Of a stretch of 64,000 bases of DNA, positions 1,203 through 61,835 are shown in pieces; within the stretch, counting starts at the first letter, position 1; each line of letters starts with the position of its first letter. Made by a program: the position numbers and the translations under genes. The notes under the pieces were generated by a model. The model was not told the origin of the DNA. It did not search any database and worked only from the letters and a program-made list of their open reading frames with translations. The DNA lies in NCBI GenBank assembly GCA_951230915.1, contig OX579636.1, positions 44,643,912 through 44,707,911 on the forward strand, given 5' to 3'. Source of the stretch: Antitrichia curtipendula (Eukaryota; Streptophyta; Bryopsida; Hypnales; Leucodontaceae).

Positions 1203-1910
1203 GTGGCAAACACACAAATTTACCTCCAGGCCCATGAGGTCTCCCCGTCATTGGTTCCTTGCATTTGTTGGGCAAATTCTCAGTGCGGGATTTAACCAAA
1301 CTGGCCGAGACGTATGGTCCGCTGATGTGCATATGATTGGGGCCAAGGATAATTGTGGTGGCGACCTCTCGTGTAGCAGCGGAGGAGATTCTCAAGACCC
1401 AAGGCTCCAATTTCACAAACCAAATCACAACTTTTGTTTCAGATCTGATTGTTCCAAAAAGTATTGTGTTGCCTCTTTTTCCGATCCTCCTCTGGCTTGG
1501 AAATTAGATTCTGTGAGGATGTTGCAATTGAATCATATAACGTCGTTATGAGAACTAAGTGCTAGCATACAAAACGTGGTAGTGGTGAGGGATGTTATTT
1601 CCATAACAAGGCTCCATTTTCAAGCTAACTTCAATGAACAACTAATAGCAAATAATCGTAATGTTAGACAAACGTTTAAGCTTTGGAAAATTATATGACT
1701 CTCCTTTGTAAAAACGGCAATTAGTGAGTGATTTCCATTTGTACAAATTGAATTTGATTGAGGTTATGGAGATGATGTTTTGGATCATTGCATTTTGTCT
1801 TCAGATACGGAAGAGATACTGAGAAGCTTGAGTGTCTAGAATGCTCAAGATGGTAGGTAGTAGAATGATCGAGTTTAGGAAAATTAAGGTTTGCGCACCT
1901 ATTATCAACA

Positions 1911-2110
1911 CTAATGACACCTAAGCATGGTTAATATTTTTTAAACAAGAATTATTTACACTAATGACACCTAAGCATGGTTAATATTTTTTAAACAAGA
2001 ATTATTTACACTAATGACACCTAAGCATGGTTAATATTTTTTAAACAAGAATTATTTACACTAATGACACCTAAGCATGGTTAATATTTTTTAAACATGA
2101 ATTATTTTTA
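1911..2110. repeat. 50-bp tandem repeat, four copies
   Basis: A 50-bp unit starting CTAATGACACCTAAGCATGG is repeated head to tail at 1911, 1961, 2011 and 2061. The first three are identical; the fourth differs near its end (ACATGA for ACAAGA, then ATTTTTA). The near-identity implies recent expansion or conversion inside the dead P450 locus. Confidence 0.97.
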
Positions 2111-12560: not shown

Positions 12561-13887
12561 GAGCTATTAAAATGAAAATTGTGAAGTTCATTTATGGAGG
12601 TCACTTTTTGAAATGTGTTTTTACAAATGACATATTTCTAATTTTTATATATAGAATATCAAACAAGGAATAATTTGAAAATCCATACCAATAAATTAGC
12701 ACATGAATGAGGGAAAAATTGGCTAGGTGAAGGTTGCATCCCTAAGAGATCAACTTAGGGTTGTGTGCACTCATTCTATCATTGAAAAAATTATGTTGAG
12801 ATTGCTTTGGGAATAAAATTTGCACTACCTATTGGAAGAATACTATAAATTGGTCATTTTGAGGTATAAATTTGAGATGTAATACAAAATGAGATTTAAC
12901 TATGAAATTTCAGTGACTTATAAATATTTTATAGATATAATTGTTATAATAGTTATATTCTTATGTAAATATGTTAATGTCTTATATTTTCTTAAAGTAA
13001 ATGAATATCTATTAGATAATACAATCATTGGTGTATCAAAAAAATCAATACTTGTTTACTTCGATAAAGTCATTAAGTTTTGGCACAATGCAAATGATTT
13101 CAATCTACAATAATATTCAGAAATTCATAGGAAAATACACATTTATTAGTTTTAAATTTTATATGTAAAAAAATTAATATATTTTTGTTCTAAAAAATTG
13201 TTAAAGAATAAGAATCATAAGATGGAACTGCCAATATTTAAGGGCAATTTTTGATTTGCAATCCATGGAAATAAAACAATTCATGGAAATAAAACAATGA
13301 AGATTAACAATTTATAATGATCCATCTTATTATAATCCTATCCTTTAGAAGTTTTGTTCATCATTAGAAGGTTATGAATAGATTTTCTTCATACCAAAAG
13401 AAGGTATGTTTGTAGAACAAATTTCTAAGTTTGAATGTCTATGACCATTGCCTAGTTTTAACATACCAACCAATTGCTTTAAATTTCTACACCCAAATTT
13501 CTTTTAATAAGATAAATGGTTAACTTCTATACAAAAAAGTCATGTATTTTCATCATAAAAAAAATAAAGATATGTAAAACATCAATTTTTTTTTGTATTG
13601 TAGTGAAATTCAGTTCATTCCTTCAAGTACCATAAGTGTAAGTCAAGGTTAGAATTTTTTTTTAAATACTTTTTTTTTTTAAATAAATTTTGATAGGCTA
13701 AAAATAGAATTTTTAATTATATATATTTATTTTATTTTAATATTTAAATCAACTATTTTTATATTGAGAAGCTAATTTTCCTAAAAAATTTGACATTTAT
13801 TTTTAGAATTTTTTTGTCAATCCTTCCTTATAATTATGGTAGTCATTAGATGTTGTGCATATACAATTATATTAGCTACTAATTTGA
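12561..13887. other. AT-rich noncoding DNA
   Basis: Open frames here (for example 12889-13113) are short and Lys/Ile/Asn/Phe-rich, as expected by chance in such composition. No gene, RNA or clear repeat seen. Confidence 0.6.
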
Positions 13888-14603
13888 CCCCTAAAGATTT
13901 TTTTACTATATTTTCACCAAAAATGTTCCAAAACTACCATTTCTAGTACATGTACCAATTTATTTTTAACATTTTTGGACTTATGTAACCATACGATCTT
14001 GTAATAAGCTAGTCTGAAAAGATGTGGAAAAAAATTCAGAAATTCCCACTATTTAGACTCCAAGATATTATTGGTAGCATTTGAAGTGACAAAAATTATT
14101 TTTTGGGCTCTACAAAAAAACCAGGCAACTGCACTTCACAAGGTCAAATTTTTATGAAAAAAATTCCAAAATGGTTGTAACTCTTTGGATTCATTCTTCA
14201 AGGCAATTTGGCTACATGCTTGAAAATTTTCATATTATTTGGAATTGTACAACATATAGGAAAAAAGTAGTAATTAGAAAGAAGTAATAAATAATTAAAA
14301 ATAGTAAATAATTAATCATATATTTAGAATTAAAAAATGCCAATTCCAATGGTTGCAATGTTGTAATAAAAAATCTACGCCTATTGATTTTTGTTTTTTC
14401 CCAAAATATTGAAAATTGAGTTAAATAAAGGACTTCAAAGTTTGTTTTAGAGTAGAGAATCTATGACTATCCATAAACTTCCCACAACAAAACTCCTCAT
14501 AAATTTCATCTCATTAATCAAAATGGAATGATTCAAAGGTTTCCAATTATAATTACTCCCTCTATTCCATTTATAATTACTCGTTTTATTCCATTTATAA
14601 TTA

Positions 14604-15762
14604 CTCCCTCTATTTCACTAAAAATCTCCAAATCAAGCACAATTTTTGTCCCACTAAAAAAATCCATTTACTAATTTCAACTATTGAGTAAGCATTGGCC
14701 AAATTGAATGACCTTGTGAGAGTTAGTGGCAAGCAATCAAGGAGCATTTTTCTCCTAGCAAGCTTTGCCTTGCTGAAATGAAGCACCTTGTACTTGATGC
14801 TTCCTCAAATAGTTGTGTTGACAATGGATTTGGTAACCACTTGGGTGCCATGCAAATTTGTTCATGAAAGAGGTCAAATTTTCTAGTTGTAATATTTAGG
14901 TTGGGAGCATATATTTCTACAATCCCATTGTTGTCACCGACCTTTAAATCATCAAGAATGATGAGTTGGTAATATTCACAAACGATGCTCAAATTTGATA
15001 TTTTTCGCATAGATTTTGGGTGCTTGAACGACAACATCTAAATTGGAGATTTTACATAGATCTAGGGGATGAATAACTAGTTTATAAATGTATGTATTAC
15101 TAGCACAAAGACTAAAAATATACTCCTTCTATACTGCTAAAAACCTCCAAAGTTCTTTTTTTTGAGGGATTAACTGTATTTTTAGTCATAATGCTAACAA
15201 ACATGTAGTCAAGAACAAGTAGGCCATACTTTAGATCTATCCAAAATCTCCACCTTAGACATTGTCGTTTAGGCACCTCAAATCCATGTGGAAAGTACAA
15301 TATTTGAAAATAATTTGTAAATGTTGTCAACTTTATCATTTTAAATGATTTAAAGGGGGGGGGGGGGGGGGGAAGTTGGCAACAATAGGATTCTAGAAAT
15401 GTGTTGCCTAACCTAAAGTATGTGCATTAAGATTACCTAGCCCACTTTACAAACAAATTTTTATAGTGTTGAAGTGGTTACTAAATGCATCATCAACATT
15501 ACTATCTAAAGAAGCAATTTTACAAGGTGCCTCATATGGGTAAGACCAAACTTGCTAGGCCGAAGAAATGCTCCTAGATTGTTTCACTTGCCTCCATAGA
15601 GTTGTTCAATACGGCAAATACTTATTGAACGGTCAAAATCAAGAAACGGAGCTTTTTAGTGGGATAAAAATTCTACTTGATTTGGAGGTTTTTAGTAGTA
15701 CAAAAGAAGTACTTAATTCCTCATGGGAAGGTTTTTGAAGTTTTTTAGTTGGACAAAGGGAG
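14604..15762. mobile_element. Nested mariner/Stowaway-type element, about 1.16 kb
   Basis: The left end CTCCCTCTATTTCACTAAAAA at 14604 and the right end, whose reverse complement reads TCTCCCTTTGTCCAACTAAAAA, form long inverted repeats. Similarity extends to about 60 bp: CTCCAAATCAAG, then TTTTTGTCCCACTAAAAA on the left, its inverse at about 15649-15700 on the right. CTCCCT starts next to TA are typical of plant Stowaway/mariner elements. Partial extra copies of the end (TTCCATTTATAATTACTC) stand at 14560-14603. Broken frames lie inside (for example 14723-15037 minus), but I cannot recognise a transposase. Confidence 0.75.
15355..15372 (+). repeat. Run of 18 G residues
   Basis: An uninterrupted G18 tract within the nested element, in a region otherwise poor in G. 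Such runs expand by slippage and can form G-quadruplexes. The exact length may be an assembly estimate. Confidence 0.95.
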
Positions 15763-16261
15763 AAAATCTAAAAAATAATTTCAAAATTATTTAGTTTTAA
15801 AACTGATTTCCAAAGAATTATTTTTGTTGCCCGGGTTGCCTATTAAGCAATGAAAATTACATATTTGACAATAATTTTTTAACTATGTAGTTAAAAGTTA
15901 TAAAAATTGTTGAGCCTTAAAGCTACTCCTTGGGCATATATTGTGTGAAAATTTCAAAGAAAGAAAATAAAAATTCCATTTGTAGTGAGCTACCCAAAAT
16001 CACCATATTGTCAAAAAAAAACCCACCATTTTGTCCTTTACGGATTAAAAAATTTATGAGAAAAAAGAAAAAGTGACAACGTGCAAAGGTCAAGTTCAAT
16101 TGTACTTATTGTTAGATACACATTTTTTTAATTCTATTGTTCAAGCTTGTTTGAGATTGCAAGCCAACATCATTGAATTTAATTGAACATCCATAGGGAT
16201 ATTTTTCATAAAGATCAAAGAATGAATTTTGACTATAACTAAAGAAGATGAAGCCACAGCT

Positions 16262-17242
16262 TTAACCCCTCACCGCCCAAGGGGACCAAAAGTGTCCTCA
16301 CACAGTCTAGCAGTCAAATTCAAAGTGCTGTAACTTTTGCATCCAATGTCCAAATTCAATAAAACTTGTTGGAAAATCTGCGCATACTAGTCTATTTTTT
16401 GTGGTAAAATTTTCAGATTTATCCAATATGAATTGAGTTTTTGAAAGCCATTCAAAGTTTTCAGGTTCAATTTGAGTTCACCACACTGCATTGAGATGGA
16501 TGCAACTTTGGGGGCTTGTATCTTTTTCATCAAATTTTATTTTTCAATAAACTTTGTTGGGTTTTGTTCCCCATAAAGTCTACTTATTGTGGTAAAATTT
16601 TCATGTCAATCCAAGTTGTTTTGAATGCTTGGGAGCAATTCGAAGTTCAAATTTCAGACATTTTTGCATTACAATGAACTTCGGCGGCTTATAACTTCTT
16701 TACATAGGGCTTGTTTTCAATAATTTTTGTTGGAAAAGTTGCGCATACTAGACTAGATCTTGTGATAAAAATTTCATTTCAATCTAAGAAGTTATGATTA
16801 ACTGAGAAGCATTTTAGTAGAGGTAGGTTCAGTCATAGATGTGTTTTTCTGTTACTTTTTTCACTATTTTTTGACATTTCAAAATGATTTTGCAAACACT
16901 ATGAGTCAATTGAATGAATTTTTTTTCTACCCAAGTGTTTGTCTTTTGGTTTTGAATCACTTTGTAATTTAAAGTTTTTTCATTTGAGTAGGTTTAGAAA
17001 TCGAATTGCACCTCCAAATGTGTTTTTAGGAAAATTTCAGCATCTTTTTTCAACACTAGAACATTATAATCTTTCAATCTATACGGTCAAATGACCCCAA
17101 ATTTAATTTACACCATCTACAACATACACACTACAAGATTGTTCGGTTGAGATTTTCATACCTTATTCACATTTAGACTTATAACACTTGAAAAGCAAAG
17201 TTGTTTTTTGACATGGTTAGGCCTTGGGCGGTGAGGGGTTAA
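16262..17242. mobile_element. TTAA-flanked element, family D, 973 bp, perfect 17-bp TIRs
   Basis: TTAA at 16262-16265 is followed by CCCCTCACCGCCCAAGG (16266-16282). CCTTGGGCGGTGAGGGG (17222-17238) is its exact reverse complement and is followed by TTAA (17239-17242). TTAA target duplication with a C-rich terminus fits piggyBac, or less likely a Sola group. There is no ORF of useful length, so it is non-autonomous. The inside holds about three diverged copies of a unit of roughly 180 bp, each with a form of TGTGGTAAAATTTTCA (near 16398, 16591 and 16762). The perfect ends suggest fairly recent movement. Confidence 0.9.
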
Positions 17243-18258: not shown

Positions 18259-19068
18259 TTAACCCCTAAGTGCCCAAGTGACCATATATGGTCGATCTGA
18301 AATTTCAGGCTCATTTTGGTGCGGGCAGTTAAATTCGTTTGACCGGTTTAAAATTTTTTTTGGGCAGTTTTTAGGATTAACTATTGAAAACTTTCATTTT
18401 TCACTGAAAAAGGTACATATTTGATTGTTGAGAGGTCTCCGAAGCCATATATGTCCATTAATGGAAGAGTAAAGCTTGCTTATTTTACTTAATTTTTCAA
18501 CTTTGAGCAATTTCACTTGATTTGGGATCTAAAAACTTATACTTATCCATTTGCTTTGAAAATGGTCTTAGTGGAAAGAGGAAAGTGTTTTCATGATTTT
18601 CACCATTGAAATTTTTTAAAGAAAATATTGATTTGGATTTATTTGTGATTTATACTTATTATAAAAAATTGCATCTCAACAATTGCAAGGTGGATTGTGT
18701 AATGAGTTTAATAGCTTTTCGTGTGAAATTAAGTTTTTTGAAAGTGTATTTTAGTGTACTAATACAATTTGTAGTTGTTCATGTCACCTCTAATCCCAAA
18801 AAAAATTTATGTGCAAATTTCTGAAACATTGTGGGGAGGGGCAGCATACTAAAAATAGAAAATTTACATTTCTCTTGTTATAATCTCACAATTCTTAAGC
18901 AATTTTGCACTCAAAATTGATGTGTGTACTAATAAGCAAGCTCTTTAAACATCCATACGGTTAGATTTTGAAAAAACAACAATTTGCTTCAATGGGGATA
19001 ACTATAAGCCAATGCTCTTTTTTCATAGTCAAAACACATTGAAAAATGCTTGGGCATTTAGGGGTTAA
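18259..19068. mobile_element. TTAA-flanked element, family E, about 802 bp
   Basis: TTAA (18259-18262) is followed by CCCCTAAGTGCCCAAG. The right end CTTGGGCATTTAGGGG stops at 19064 and is followed by TTAA (19065-19068). The 16-bp inverted repeats differ at one position. The inner GCCCAAG word is shared with the 16266 element, so the two are related. A perfect 14-bp palindrome lies just inside the left end. The longest frame (18606-18824) is AT-biased and resembles no transposase, so the element is non-autonomous. Confidence 0.87.
18280..18293. other. 14-bp palindrome with CArG-like core
   Basis: GACCATATATGGTC is a perfect palindrome whose centre CCATATATGG fits the CC(A/T)6GG pattern bound by MADS-domain proteins. 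It is 17 bases inside the left end of the family E element. It could equally be a transposase-binding palindrome. Confidence 0.5.
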
Positions 19069-20728: not shown

Positions 20729-21895
20729 ATTCACTACAAGGGTAATGGGCCCGAATTGATTGTATTTTTGACAGAAAAGTGTCCAAAATGACCACCATGT
20801 CTTTTGGAACTTGGCACTCTGTCAATGTGATTCATATTGCAACCTCTTTCAAAATCTTGTCAAATTTTCAGTCAATTTCTCTGTCAATTTTTGTGTTTAT
20901 CATGGTATTCCATGAGATGAGAAGACAAGTGGTTTATACAAGTGGAGTGGTAGGGAGGTAAGACAAACCATGTGGGATATCTAGTGGAAGCTCCACCGCT
21001 CATAGTTTAATGAAAATTAAGTAGGAATAATGGTTAAAGTGAAATTTCAGACCTAATTTAAGCATAGTAGAATACAAAATTTTAGAAAACTTTGAACTAA
21101 GAAAATGTGGTATTTCAAACCAAATTTTATGTCAAAAAATCCGTTTGAGATTTAAAGCTTCCATTCAAAAGTTATAGACAAATTTCAATGAGAGATTGGA
21201 AGGGACATTTGTTTTTACAATTTCAAACATCCTCACTAAAATTTGCTTATAACTTTTGATTGGAAGCTTCAAATCTCAAACGGATTTTTGGACATAAAAT
21301 GTGGTTTGAAATAATTCATTTTCTTAGTTCAAAGATTAATAAAATAAGTTATTCTACTATGTTAAAATTAGGTCTGAAATTTCACTTTAATCATTATTCC
21401 TAAACTATGAGCGGTGGAGCTCCTAACCCTCATTTACATATCCCATATGGTTTGTCTTACCTCTTACCAACCCACTTGTATAAAGCACTTGTCTTCTCAG
21501 CATTTCTAACTGTAGGGCGAGTTGCATTCAAATTTGAAGTGCAACTTAACAAAATATTCTCGAAAGTATTGTTTAAATTTACGGAAGTCCAATTCTAAAA
21601 TGCATAATGTACTTTTGAAACTTTAATTTACTTTTTCTTTAAAAATATTTTGGTTGCAAATGTGAAAAACTGGCAGTCCTTCCTACGTGGCAAAAATTCA
21701 AATGATTACAATTTTTTGGATGAAAAAGCATGATGACGTGTATTTGATGACGTGTATCTTTGTCCGAAATGACTGCCGAATTGACAGAATTCTGTCAATT
21801 CAATGTCCGAATCAAGTACTCCTAATCTACAACAGAGTTGACAGAGTTCTGTCAAATTTACTGTCAAATAGGACACTGTTTCCCTTGTAGTGATT
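20729..21895. mobile_element. Non-autonomous CACTA element, 1161 bp, TSD ATT
   Basis: The element starts CACTACAAGGG at 20732 and ends CCCTTGTAGTG at 21892, flanked on both sides by ATT (20729-20731 and 21893-21895), a 3-bp target duplication. CACTAC termini and a 3-bp duplication define the CACTA (En/Spm) superfamily. Subterminal repeats of the word CTGTCAA in both orientations occur near both ends (for example GACAGAATTCTGTC near 21784), as expected for transposase binding arrays. No transposase frame is present. Most of the inside is a long inverted repeat, listed separately. Confidence 0.93.
20914..21503. repeat. Long inverted repeat (hairpin) inside the CACTA element
   Basis: Arms of about 279 bp (20914-21192) and 272 bp (21232-21503) are reverse complements apart from small gaps, with a loop of about 39 bases. 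Shared words include GCTCCACCGCTCATAGTTTA and GTGAAATTTCAGACCTAATTT (first 20 bases matched) with their inverses. If transcribed, it would fold into a long double-stranded stem suited to small-RNA production. Confidence 0.88.
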
Positions 21896-26304: not shown

Positions 26305-28085
26305 TTCTTCTCAATTGTGACTCCATCACTTCTAGAGAATGAAAGATCCCTCTTGGCACCGAGAAGCCCCTGGAAGAGTTTAGAAATTAACCCCTAAAGG
26401 ACCAAACACTGTTTTTTGACAACATAGTGATTTTGGGCAACTCACTACGATCGGAATTTTTTTTTTCCTTCAAAATTTCACTCAAGATGGGTCTAAGGAT
26501 TAGCTTTGAGGCCCAACAATTTTCATAACTTTTGACTATGTGGTTAAAAAGTTATTGCATGATATGTCATTTTCATTGATCGACAGGCAGCCTAAGCAGT
26601 TGAAAAAACTTATTTAAAAATCACTTTTAAAAAATAAAAAAAAATGAAAATGGTTCTTTAGATTTATATATACGTTGGAAGCTTTGAACCATTACATTTT
26701 GATTAATGAGATGAAAGTTATGAAGAGTTTTAGTTTGAGGGTAGTTATGGAATCTCCACTCTAAGATAAACTTTGAAGTTCTATATTTAACTCAATTTTC
26801 AATATTTTTGAAAAAAAATAAAAACATTGGATGTGGATTTTTTATTTCAATGTTACAACCAATGGAATTGTCATTTTTCTATTCTATATTTAAATTCTTA
26901 ACAATTTAGTGTTTTGAACATTCTCTACCTCTTTCAACTTACTATTTGTTTCTTATATGTTTAACAATTCCAAATGATCTGAAAATTTTCAAGCATGTAG
27001 ACAACTTGCCTTGAAGAATGAATCCAAAGAGTAACCACCATTTTGGACATTTTTTCATACAAATGTGACCTTGTGAAGTGCAGCTGCCCGGATTTTTGCA
27101 GGGACAAAAAAAGGATTTTTGTCAATTCAAACGCTATTATCTTGCAATCCACATGGTGTAAATTTCTGAAATTTTTTCCACAACTTCTCAAACTAGTTTA
27201 CTACAAGATCCTGCAGTTACATTTTTCCAAAAATATTTATGTTCTAAAATTTGGTACTTGTATTAGAAGTAGCAGTTTTGGAGCAGTTTTGGTGAAAACA
27301 TGGTCTCTGACCTTTAGGGGTTAAGACTCTAAGAAAAATTCAATTTTTTTTTAATTTTTTTTTTGCAACTTCATCACCCTAGAAAAGTCCTTTCAAGGGT
27401 CTGAGGTTTGGAGCTCTCAAATTTTATTTTTAAATTTTTTAATAATATATATTTATTTTTTGTCAAAAGTCCATTACCTTGAGAAACCCCTAAGTATCGG
27501 AGTCTCAGTATCAAGAGCCCTCTTGCAAGGGTTGGGATTTAAGACTCTAAAAAAAAAAATTCAATTTTTTTTAATTCAATTTTGTTAATGCAAATCCCTT
27601 ACTTCAAGAGGTTCTTTAGGGATTCTAGCATTTGAGATTCTTAAAAAAAAATCCAAGTTTTTTTTAAGAATTTTTTTTTTGTCCACAATTCTATCACCTC
27701 CAAGAACTCTTTTAGTATTGAGAAGCCCTTTCGGGGTGCGGAGGGACTCTCCAAACTTCTTTTTATTTTTTTATTTTTATTTTTCTACAACTCCGTCATC
27801 TCAAAAAGAAATTGTTGGTACCAATAGGTCCCTTGGAGTTTGGGATTAGGATTCTTAAAAAAAAATTCAACTTTTTTTTTGGCCTGAATGAAGAGACTCC
27901 TTGTGGGATCTAGGATTTAAGACTCCTTGTGGGATCTAGGATTTAAGACTCCAAAACTCTTTTTTCCATTTTTTGGGGTGTGAGTATATATCGCAACCCC
28001 ATCACCTCCAAAAAAACTTTTGGGCACCAAGATGCTCCTTTGGGGTTTGGAGAGTTGGACACTCTAGAAATTTGCATGCACGCAA
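26305..28085. repeat. Diverged tandem array, units of about 100-130 bp, interrupted by a transposon
   Basis: About eight degenerate units follow a common plan: CATCACCT, then a stretch like AAGAACTCTTTT, GAGAAGCCCCTTTGGGG-like words, GGATTTAAGACTCTAA, and a long A/T tract. Unit starts lie near 26320, 27368, 27465, 27590, 27685, 27788, 27880 and 28000. The first unit is split by the TTAA-type element at 26387-27324. No coding potential. It reads as an old satellite or minisatellite. Confidence 0.7.
26387..27324. mobile_element. TTAA-flanked element, family A copy 1, 930 bp
   Basis: TTAA (26387-26390), CCCCTAAAGGACC at the left end, GACCTTTAGGGG at the right end (to 27320), TTAA (27321-27324). 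The 10-12 bp inverted repeats are nearly perfect. It is inverted relative to the copy at 45719-46661 and similar along its length. The flanks join to form one unit of the surrounding tandem array, and neighbouring units carry the uninterrupted site with a single TTAA. No transposase frame; the ORFs inside are chance frames. Confidence 0.9.
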
Positions 28086-44713: not shown

Positions 44714-45305
44714 TAAACCCCTAAAACTCCGCTTGTCCCCTCAAGGGACAATTTGGGTCCGGGTAGGTTCCTGTTGTCTCAATTTGAAGTGAAATTTTTT
44801 GAGTTTTTTGAGGTTGCGTAGCTTCGCAAGAGCTTTGTGGATATATAATTTTTGTTTCAATCAGATGCCGGATGAAAAAGTTATGGCACAATGAGCAAGA
44901 AATGGAGATTGGCGGGCAGCCCAAAAAAAATTACAAAAAGTCAAAAAAAAAAAATTTAAATTTTTTCCCTAAAAGATTATGTTCTTACCTATACATGAAG
45001 CTTTGATTCATTCTATTTGGACTAGGGATGAGAAAGTTATGGACAATCTTAGTTTTTTTGGGCAATTTAAGCATCTTCTTGAAAAAAACCTTTTTGTTCA
45101 ACTTTGAATGCTAATATCTTCCAATCCGTACAGTCAAATTTGATGAAATTTTTACTACATGATCTCAGAAAAGTTAAGTACAAGATCCTACGATTAAATT
45201 CCCCAAAAAACAAAAAAATTGGTTTCCTTAAGTGAATACAACAGAAGTGGTAGTTTTGAGTGTTTTTTGGTAGAAAACACCCTGGCTCAGGGTCTTAGGG
45301 GTTAA
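44714..45305. mobile_element. TTAA-type element, family B copy 2
   Basis: The left end CCCCTAAAACTCC at 44718 follows GTAA-A (decayed site); the right end GGTCTTAGGGG at 45301 is followed by intact TTAA (45302-45305). It is a direct-orientation relative of the element at 42537 with similar length, about 585 bp. Shared blocks with family A (ATATCTTCCAATCC, GAGAAAGTTATGGA) place both in one group. No transposase. Confidence 0.82.
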
Positions 45306-45714: not shown

Positions 45715-46665
45715 TTAACCCCTGAAGGTCAAAGACTACTATGTTTTCACCAAAACCACTTCCAAACTGCTATTTTTAGTACAAATACCAAATTTTAGAA
45801 GAAAAACATTTAAAAAAAATTTAACTGTAGGATCCTGAATTAAACTGGTTTGAAAAGTTGTGGAAAAAATTCCAGAAATTTCCACCGTGTGGATTGCAAG
45901 ATAATAGCATTTGAATTGACAAAAACCTTTTTTTGTCCTTGCAAAAATACGGGCAGCTGCACTTCACAGCTTCACAAGGTTACATTTGTATGAAAAAATG
46001 TCCAAAATGGTTGTTACTCTTTGGATTCATTCTTCAAGGCAAGTTGTCTACATGCTTGAAAAATTTCAGATCATTTGGAAGTGTAAAACATATAGGAAAA
46101 AAACAGTAAGTAGAAAGAGGTAGAGAATGTTCTAAACACTAAATTGTTAAGAATTGAAATATGGAATTGAAAAATGCCAATTCCAATGGTTGTAATGTTG
46201 TAATAAACAATCAACACCCAATATTTTTATTGTTTTTCAAAAATATTGAAAAATTGAGTTAAATAAAGGACTTCAAAGTTTATCTTAGAGTAGAGATGCC
46301 ATAACTAACCTCAAACTAAAACTCCTCATAACTTTCATCCTACTTTCATCTCATTAATCAAATGGAATGATTAAAAAATTTCCTTGTATACATAAATCTA
46401 AAGAACCAATTTTGGTTTCTTATTGATTTTTAAAGAAGATTTTTCAGCTCCCTGGGCTACCCGCCAACTAATGAATATGACATATTATGCAATAACTTTT
46501 TAACTATGTAGTCAAAAGTTATGAAGATTGTTGGGCCTTAAAGCTACTCCTTGGGCACATTTTGTATGAAAAATTTCAGAAAAAAAATTTAAAAATTCCA
46601 ATCGTAGTGAACTACCCAAAATCACTCTGTTGTCAAAAAACAATATTTGGTCCTTTAGGGATTAA
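45715..46665. mobile_element. TTAA-flanked element, family A copy 2, 943 bp
   Basis: TTAA (45715-45718), CCCCTGAAGGTC at the left end, GGTCCTTTAGGGA at the right end (to 46661), TTAA (46662-46665). It runs parallel in inverted orientation to 26391-27320 over the whole length, for example CTTTGGATTCATTCTTCAAG and AAGTTGTCTACATGCTTGAA. No transposase frame. Confidence 0.9.
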
Positions 46666-55899: not shown

Positions 55900-56623
55900 A
55901 AAACCATGATGCTTGGATTTCAAAAGGAAGTATTTTCAACACTTCCCGAATGGTCACATTTCATCTTTTAAACTTTTAACCTAAAATGTATAGATCCTAC
56001 TACTTGCAAATCTCTATAATATATTTAAGAAACGAGTTGGGAATACATGTAAAAATTCAACAAAAAACATTTCATATTTATGCTTGGAAAAAAATAGAGA
56101 ATGATTTAAAATACTAAACTGTTAAGACTATAGTTATAAAATTGAAAAATGCCAATTCCAATGGTTGTGATGTTGTAATAAACAATCTTCATCCTATAAT
56201 TTTAATTTTTTTCCAAAAAAATTCAAAATTCAATTAAACAAAAGATTTCAAATTAATTTAAAAGTAAAGATTCTATAATTGCTTGCAAACTAAAACTCCT
56301 CATAACTTTCATCTTGTTAATAAAAATGAAATGATTTAAATCTTTTCATATATATATAAATCTAAAAAATCAGTTTCAAATTTTTATTTCTTAAATTAAT
56401 ATTTTTTTTTGAGTTTGCTTGGACTCCAGAAGAAACTACATATCATAAAAAAAATTCTTAAATATGTAGTCAAAAGTTATAAAAATTGTTGTGCTTTAAA
56501 GCTACTCCTCAACCTCATGTTGTCTGAAAATTTTAAGGAGATAAATGAAAATTAATGTTTGTAAATGGATGACTGAAAAATGTTATTTTGCCAAAAATGC
56601 TACTTAGACTTTTAGGGGTCAAA
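55900..56623. mobile_element. TTAA-type element, family A copy 4, left part decayed
   Basis: From about 56060 the sequence follows the 45719-46661 element (ATGCCAATTCCAATGGTTGT, AAACTCCTCATAACTTTCAT, TTTAAAGCTACTCCT). It ends CTTTTAGGGG at 56619 before TCAA, a decayed TTAA. The left boundary is not recognisable and is a guess. Most diverged of the larger copies. Confidence 0.65.
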
Positions 56624-61467: not shown

Positions 61468-61835
61468 GATGATCATCTCAAACTTGGGGGCTGCATACTT
61501 GCGTATGATGATCATATTGATTCAGTGGCTTCATACATGCGTACTATAATTATACATATTACGTGTATTTAGACGCACTGAATCAGTGTCATTAAAAAGT
61601 TTTCCAAAAGCGTACAATTGATGTACTTTAATTATACAAATGTGATATCCAAAATGCACCTAAACTATACTGATAATAGTACAAGAATCATACGTTATTG
61701 ATATTCATTGTTTTGGCACTGATTCAGTGTATCCAAATACACATAATATGTACGATTATAGTACGCAGGTATGAAGCCACTGAATCAGTATGATATCTGT
61801 TAAAAAATCGTCCTTCCTTAAGTTTGAGATGATGA
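61468..61835. mobile_element. Foldback MITE, about 365 bp
   Basis: The outer ends match inversely: TGATCATCTCAAACTT near 61470 against AAGTTTGAGATGATGA near 61820. Inside, a longer inverted repeat pairs about 61530-61582 with about 61723-61787 (TTCAGTGGCTTCATAC and its inverse; ACACTGAATCAGTG-type palindromes at both arms). The word CACTGAATCAGTG or its near inverse occurs four times. No coding capacity. Confidence 0.75.

What the first reader, a model, noticed from the sequence alone, without database searches (positions are those of the whole stretch)
16262..17242. TTAA-flanked element with perfect 17-bp TIRs in a plant-like genome
The sequence shows TTAA on both sides of exact inverse ends CCCCTCACCGCCCAAGG. 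TTAA duplication with C-rich ends is the known signature of piggyBac and of some Sola transposons. Such non-autonomous elements are seldom described in land plants. Together with the related copies at 13888, 18263, 26391, 42537, 44718, 45719 and 55900, this window holds at least eight members of one group.
Basis: partly seen in the sequence, partly recalled or inferred. Interest (0 to 1): 0.75.

Follow-up and report, generated by a model that had tools for sequence, protein, structure and literature searches.

The report
Moss piggyBac-type non-autonomous DNA transposon
This is a short, gene-less jumping DNA element of the piggyBac kind, best known from animals, in what appears to be a moss genome that also carries many full-length piggyBac relatives able to explain how it moved.

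Summary
Window 16262-17242 is a 973-bp non-coding element with perfect 17-bp terminal inverted repeats (TIRs) and TTAA on both sides. Its 21-bp end occurs 644+632 times in the host genome at up to 2 mismatches; the reversed pattern gives 0. Of the 100 places listed, 66 form 33 pairs 963-1008 bp long. All 15 aligned copies have TTAA on both sides and different flanks; a nested copy shows an empty site with one TTAA.

The genome has at least 116 PF13843 transposase regions, some on TTAA-bounded elements of 5.0-5.7 kb. One, C8:12455523-12460696, ends in exactly the window TIR, though this copy is itself broken. Ends CCCCTCANNGCCC follow 11 of 12 sampled transposases of one clade and 0 of 8 outside it. 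The host looks like a moss: a LEAFY exon is 103/106 identical to PDB 4bhk, recalled as Physcomitrium patens.

'Eight members of one group' is only partly right: they are several families with piggyBac-type ends. New member of a known kind; the size of the piggyBac load in a land plant is the surprise.

The parts
16262..16265 (.). left TTAA, one half of the target-site duplication
   Evidence: 15 of 15 aligned copies, the window copy among them, have TTAA on both sides
16266..16282 (+). left 17-bp TIR CCCCTCACCGCCCAAGG
16262..16300 (+). left TTAA, TIR and subterminal stretch similar to the 5' ends of full-length piggyBac elements: C8 89% over 36 bp, C7 85% over 39 bp, C6 83% over 36 bp
16329..16797 (+). 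imperfect internal repeats (16329-16624 versus 16517-16797 at 67%; 16355-16415 versus 16716-16776 at 82%), non-coding interior
17222..17238 (-). right 17-bp TIR, exact inverse of the left; identical to the 3' end of the C8 piggyBac element
17239..17242 (.). right TTAA, other half of the target-site duplication
18259..19068 (.). second TTAA-bounded element, ends CCCCTAAGTGCCCAAG / CCCCTAAATGCCCAAG, another family with the same kind of ends
26387..27324 (.). third TTAA-bounded element, both ends CCCCTAAAGG, another family
45715..46665 (.). copy of the 26387 family in inverse orientation, 84% identical
13884..16048 (.). diverged copy of the 26387 family (75-79%), left TTAA now TTGA, with about 1.2 kb of extra sequence inside
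44714..45305 (.). copy of a fourth family, right end AGGGGTTAA, left TTAA now TAAA
42523..43114 (.). second copy of the fourth family, 85% identical; right limit read by eye
56087..56546 (.). fragment of the 26387 family, 73-74% identical

Best explanation
16262-17242 is one copy of a non-autonomous piggyBac-superfamily DNA transposon family (about 981 bp with both TTAAs) in a moss-like plant genome. It codes for nothing. A piggyBac transposase made by full-length relatives of one clade (TIR type CCCCTCANNGCCC, for example the family of C8:12455523-12460696) recognises its TIR and subterminal ends, cuts it out and inserts it into TTAA, which becomes duplicated. Shown: the ends, the TTAA duplication with an empty site, the copy number, the PF13843 transposases and their shared ends. 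Inferred: that this transposase clade acts on it in trans, and that excision is of the seamless piggyBac type.
For: TTAA plus perfect TIRs. 644+632 genomic ends, control 0. 33 converging pairs, 963-1008 bp, among 100 listed places. 15 of 15 aligned copies have TTAA on both sides with unlike flanks. Single TTAA at the empty site in 3 of 3 fetched uninserted copies of the host repeat. 116 PF13843 regions scored of 906 candidates, all over the cut-off. Matches of a full-length element's protein to the solved piggyBat and T. ni piggyBac transposases. TTAA- and TIR-bounded coding elements. The C8 element matches the window copy over 21 of 21 bp at its 3' end and 32 of 36 at its 5' end; the C7 element shares the subterminal AGGGGACCAAAAGTGTCC. 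End type follows transposase clade, 11 of 12 inside and 0 of 8 outside (Fisher P 7e-5; clade limit set after seeing the ends). Two copies on other chromosomes are 99.5-99.6% identical to the window copy, which suggests recent spread.
Against: The C8 copy with the identical TIR is broken (an in-frame TAG and a disturbed C-terminal cysteine domain), so no intact transposase with exactly this 17-bp TIR was found among those sampled. The interior of the window copy shows no similarity to the sampled full-length elements beyond the ends that I take as meaningful, so it is not a simple deletion derivative of them. One in-clade transposase (L049) had no TTAA end in the 1.5 kb read. Activity is not tested. 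The filled site has one more C beside the TTAA than the 3 empty sites.
Confidence: 0.96

Rival explanations
1. A Sola3- or Kolobok-type non-autonomous element, since those superfamilies also use TTAA (recalled, no call).
For: A TTAA target alone does not separate these superfamilies.
Against: The same kind of ends, once the identical end, lie on elements that encode PF13843 transposases, and end type follows the transposase clade (11 of 12 versus 0 of 8). No Sola or Kolobok model was searched, so their presence elsewhere in the genome is not excluded.
Confidence: 0.02
2. An old, dead repeat that descends from piggyBac elements but is no longer mobilised by the present transposases.
For: The 15 aligned copies differ from their majority consensus by K2P 0.028-0.075, and the one transposase copy found with the identical TIR is broken.
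Against: Two copies on other chromosomes are 99.5-99.6% identical to the window copy. Full-length loci include copy pairs at 96.5-99.6% DNA identity (6 of 7 pairs compared), and many PF13843 regions lie in frames without stops, up to 1261 aa.
Confidence: 0.15
3. The TTAA belongs to the element or is a composition effect rather than a duplicated target.
For: The window is 67% A+T and TTAA is common, at 0.9% of positions. The queries that found the copies contained TTAA.
Against: 30 of 30 junctions of 15 copies carry TTAA, two copies with decayed TIRs (L037, L038) among them, and 3 of 3 empty sites keep a single TTAA.
Confidence: 0.01

Closest known systems
piggyBac-related MITEs of corals (CMITEs, PMC2872659; passages seen)
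   Same: TTAA target; TIRs within the 12-19 bp, CC[C/T]T-ended range that the paper gives for piggyBac; non-autonomous; one CMITE family has TIRs identical to a full-length piggyBac-like element and weak internal similarity; an allele without the element was seen
   Different: Host is a moss-like plant; length 973 bp; ends CCCCTCACCGCCCAAGG; no internal similarity to the sampled full-length elements was accepted beyond the ends
piggyBac of Trichoplusia ni and piggyBat of Myotis lucifugus (PDB 6x67, 9c0f; species names recalled or from papers)
   Same: The protein of a full-length moss element (P0019) matches both (E 3e-26 and 8e-32); unnamed database relatives match as a profile (E 5e-56 and 2e-66); TTAA target
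   Different: Moss open frames reach 1261 aa against PDB chains of 594 and 578; long N-terminal extensions; elements of 5.0-5.7 kb; many transposase clades side by side
PiggyBac fragments listed for the fern Ceratopteris richardii (PMC6890710; one table passage seen)
   Same: piggyBac annotation in a land plant
   Different: There 1230 fragments, 122 kb in all, in a repeat table; here TTAA- and TIR-bounded elements, open frames and 6472+6464 matches to a general end pattern (control 1+2)

Membership tests
piggyBac superfamily | TTAA target-site duplication | tested here: met
   15 of 15 copies, and an empty site with one TTAA in 3 of 3 fetched
piggyBac superfamily | short TIRs of 12-19 bp with CC[C/T]T ends (wording of PMC2872659, passages) | tested here: met
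   17-bp perfect TIR beginning CCCCT
piggyBac superfamily | PF13843 DDE_Tnp_1_7 transposase on elements with the same ends | tested here: met
   the one copy with the identical TIR is broken
piggyBac superfamily | three catalytic Asp motifs in the transposase | tested here: met
   DEVMIAY, DNFFTS and RGVDLVD in the C8 transposase; the same stretches of P0019 align to piggyBat; that these hold the catalytic Asp is recalled
piggyBac superfamily | C-terminal cysteine-rich domain | tested here: inconclusive
   A Cys pattern is seen in C7, P0019 and the A1 consensus but is disturbed in the C8 copy; the Pfam zf-Tnp_2 match of P0019 is below cut-off
piggyBac superfamily | seamless excision | not testable with these tools
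   needs an excision assay or strain comparison
Non-autonomous element / MITE | no transposase, high copy number, homogeneous length | tested here: met
   No stop-to-stop frame of 130 aa or more overlaps it; 644+632 ends; 33 pairs at 963-1008 bp among 100 listed places. Longer than many MITEs (recalled)
Sola | Sola transposase on elements with the same ends | not tested
   No Sola model searched; the coding elements seen with these ends carry PF13843
Kolobok | Kolobok transposase on elements with the same ends | not tested
   As for Sola

The most novel reading that the evidence does not exclude
A moss lineage hosts a large, long-lived and recently active piggyBac radiation of many transposase clades, each with its own TIR code and non-autonomous families, with thousands of insertions. 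Several of its transposases carry an undescribed small beta-rich (Tudor- or chromo-like) N-terminal domain that may steer insertion or chromatin recognition.
Probability: 0.4. Interest if true: 0.7.

Novelty: new member of a known kind. Interest (0 to 1): 0.5.

Why it matters
piggyBac is used as a genome-engineering tool, in rice too (PMC10905368, passages), and in 2017 it was said to be untested in the moss Physcomitrella (PMC5505980, passages). A moss-like genome full of native piggyBac elements would offer plant-adapted transposases and ends, would warn that an introduced piggyBac system may meet native relatives, and lets the co-variation of ends with transposases be read from one genome. 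It also suggests, as an inference, that TTAA elements in bryophyte genomes may be under-annotated.

Tried and rejected
Two searches of the large protein database gave 18 and 1 relatives, none with an organism name, so taxonomic spread could not be read. Rfam gave nothing in the window at the gathering threshold. Pfam gave nothing in the N-terminal extensions of 7 proteins even at E up to 5. The AlphaFold model of an unnamed relative (P0004) has mean pLDDT 53, so no fold search was made; it shows an island of strands at 172-225 with block pLDDT of about 48-71, so Tudor- or chromo-like is a lead, not a result. An in-frame TAG between two frames in both the C7 and C8 elements was checked as a possible conserved read-through; the two stops lie at different aligned places, so I take them as independent decay. 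In the Niphotrichum paper the one piggyBac passage shown was the word 'piggybacking' (2 occurrences). Ptychostomum knowltonii (408.8 Mb, 12 pseudochromosomes, GC 40.48%; passages) was considered as host and not taken up.

Full report
Observation. The element at 16262-17242 is as described. TTAA stands at 16262-16265 and 17239-17242, with a perfect 17-bp inverted repeat CCCCTCACCGCCCAAGG inside. No stop-to-stop reading frame of 130 aa or more overlaps it. Its interior holds imperfect direct repeats at offsets of about 188 and 361 bp.

Copy number and boundaries. The window lies in an unnamed 400.19-Mb assembly of 303 contigs. The 21-bp end (TTAA plus TIR) is found 644 times forward and 632 times reverse with up to 2 mismatches; the reversed pattern gives 0 and 0. 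Only the first 100 places are listed. Among them 66 form 33 converging pairs of 963-1008 bp, 19 of them 981 bp; the other 34 have no such listed partner within 20 kb. The full-length DNA search listed 41 matches, with 40 of 2996 candidates scored. I aligned 15 copies, the window copy among them: 5 of the loci found with the end pattern and the 10 loci returned by the DNA search. All 15 have TTAA on both sides and unlike flanks. Both queries contain TTAA, so there is some selection; L037 and L038 have decayed TIRs and still keep TTAA. K2P distance to the majority consensus is 0.028-0.075. Two copies on other chromosomes are 99.6% and 99.5% identical to the window copy; the other 12 lie at 88-96%.

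Empty site. The copy in L004 sits inside another TTAA-bounded element. The joined outer element was used as a query: 40 of 4348 candidates were scored, each with a main match that spans the junction, at 91-94% identity. The 3 that were fetched (L069-L071) have a single TTAA at the junction where L004 has TTAA, element, TTAA. All 3 also have one C fewer beside the TTAA than L004, a small difference that I do not explain.

Coding relatives. A PF13843 search of the genome scored 116 of 906 candidate regions, all over the curated cut-off, many in frames without stops, the longest 1261 aa; the 14 control genomes gave none. The protein of one such element (P0019, from L039) matches piggyBat (9c0f, E 8e-32) and T. 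ni piggyBac (6x67, E 3e-26) in the PDB. An inverted-repeat scan of 6 fetched loci found C-rich TTAA-bounded elements in L039 (5259 bp, 16 of 16 TIR positions), L042 (5689 bp, 14 of 16) and L043 (5161 bp, 12 of 16), and a weaker one in L041 (5513 bp, 11 of 16). L040 gave only an A-rich pair that I take as chance, and L044 none.

The partner clade. Downstream ends were read for 12 transposases: 11 have a TTAA with a C-rich end at 0.98-1.35 kb, L049 has none in the 1.5 kb read. Eight more were then read, 7 of them picked because they are close to L039: 8 of 8 have one at 1.0-1.4 kb, where L060 has a second end further out and the nearer was taken. Taking as clade the transposases at 56% or more identity to the L039 protein, ends CCCCTCANNGCCC follow 11 of 12 (L045-L048, L059-L064, L066; L049 without an end) and 0 of 8 of the rest (L050-L056, L065; 45-53%). 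Fisher P is 7e-5, but it is optimistic: the 56% limit was set after the ends were seen, and L047, L048 and L061 are near-copies of each other. Density control: GGGTTAA occurs 0.09 times per 1.5 kb on one strand of the window. L059 ends in exactly CCCCTCACCGCCCAAGG. With its upstream part the element is C8:12455523-12460696, 5174 bp; its 5' end matches the window copy over 36 bp at 89% and its 3' end over 21 bp at 100%. The C7 element (L057 with L046; 4993 bp) shares the 5' subterminal AGGGGACCAAAAGTGTCC. The C8 copy keeps the three Asp motifs but has an in-frame TAG and a disturbed C-terminus; C7 has an in-frame TAG at another place.

Activity. In 7 pairs of transposase loci compared, 6 match at 96.5-99.6% DNA identity over 1.35-4.1 kb and one pair (L054, L055) gave no match. 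Four of the 6 matches (L012/L015, L047/L048, L047/L061, L009/L017) stop at the downstream TTAA to within one base, as expected of separate insertions.

Scale. TTAACCCCTNANNGNCC occurs 6472+6464 times, with 1+2 for the reversed pattern. The window alone shows at least four families.

Host. The genome has a LEAFY gene (PF17538, two exon matches; stops were counted inside the longer match). One exon is identical at 103 of 106 residues to PDB 4bhk (E 3e-72), against 72 of 102 for the next chain and 2e-50 or weaker for the other four. That 4bhk is Physcomitrium patens LEAFY is recalled; the answer names no species, and no liverwort reference is known to be among the five, so moss is a strong inference, not a proof. 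The window carries a frame similar to allene oxide synthase CYP74A in the PDB (E 1e-27; no Pfam match), and frames matching tubulin-tyrosine ligase and P450. The species is not known.

Literature. Held papers say in passing that piggyBac-like elements occur in fungi and plants (PMC8086355, PMC10813416; passages). A fern genome table lists 1230 PiggyBac fragments (PMC6890710; passage). A plant TE review lists PiggyBac among superfamilies (PMC10794571; passages). Eight searches (piggyBac with moss, bryophyte, PBLE and plants, moss genome, Physcomitr, mosses, MITE and plant genomes, liverwort) listed no paper whose title or shown abstract start describes piggyBac elements of a moss. Several lists were capped (20 of 22, 25 of 958, 25 of 37, 15 of 244), only passages of some papers were seen, and most subscription journals are not held. 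The study of Bouallegue et al. on piggyBac evolution, cited in PMC8086355, was sought under a recalled DOI and is not held.

Verdict. The finding is real and the piggyBac interpretation is right. It is a new member of a known kind; the scale and apparent recency of the piggyBac load in a moss-like genome is what a transposon specialist would want to follow.

Noticed in passing
L010, L012, L013 (= L041), L015 (= L039), L018, L020, L021, L022, L025, L067; P0004, P0007, P0011, P0012: A stretch of about 35-60 residues (GxV...YxVxFxGxxG...DC) in the N-terminal extension, about 510-600 residues before RGVDxxD where that motif lies in the same frame. A pattern drafted from the first examples matched 12 of 29 loci scanned (10 different places) and missed 17; in the P sequences it was read by eye. 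No Pfam match; P0004 model shows strands there at low to moderate confidence.
   Followed up: partly
L034 around 2464-2470; L008 around 2475-2481: These copies share one TTAA with what looks like the end of another TTAA element, as if element ends could serve as targets.
   Followed up: no
window 1901-2100: Tandem array with a 50-bp unit.
   Followed up: no
window 21022-21402 and 61511-61794: Two long inverted repeats (arms 171 and 122 nt, 88% and 80% complementary, 39 and 40 nt between the arms), possibly foldback elements.
   Followed up: no
P0001-P0003: Unnamed database proteins 57-67% identical to a moss piggyBac transposase, perhaps from mosses in environmental samples.
   Followed up: no
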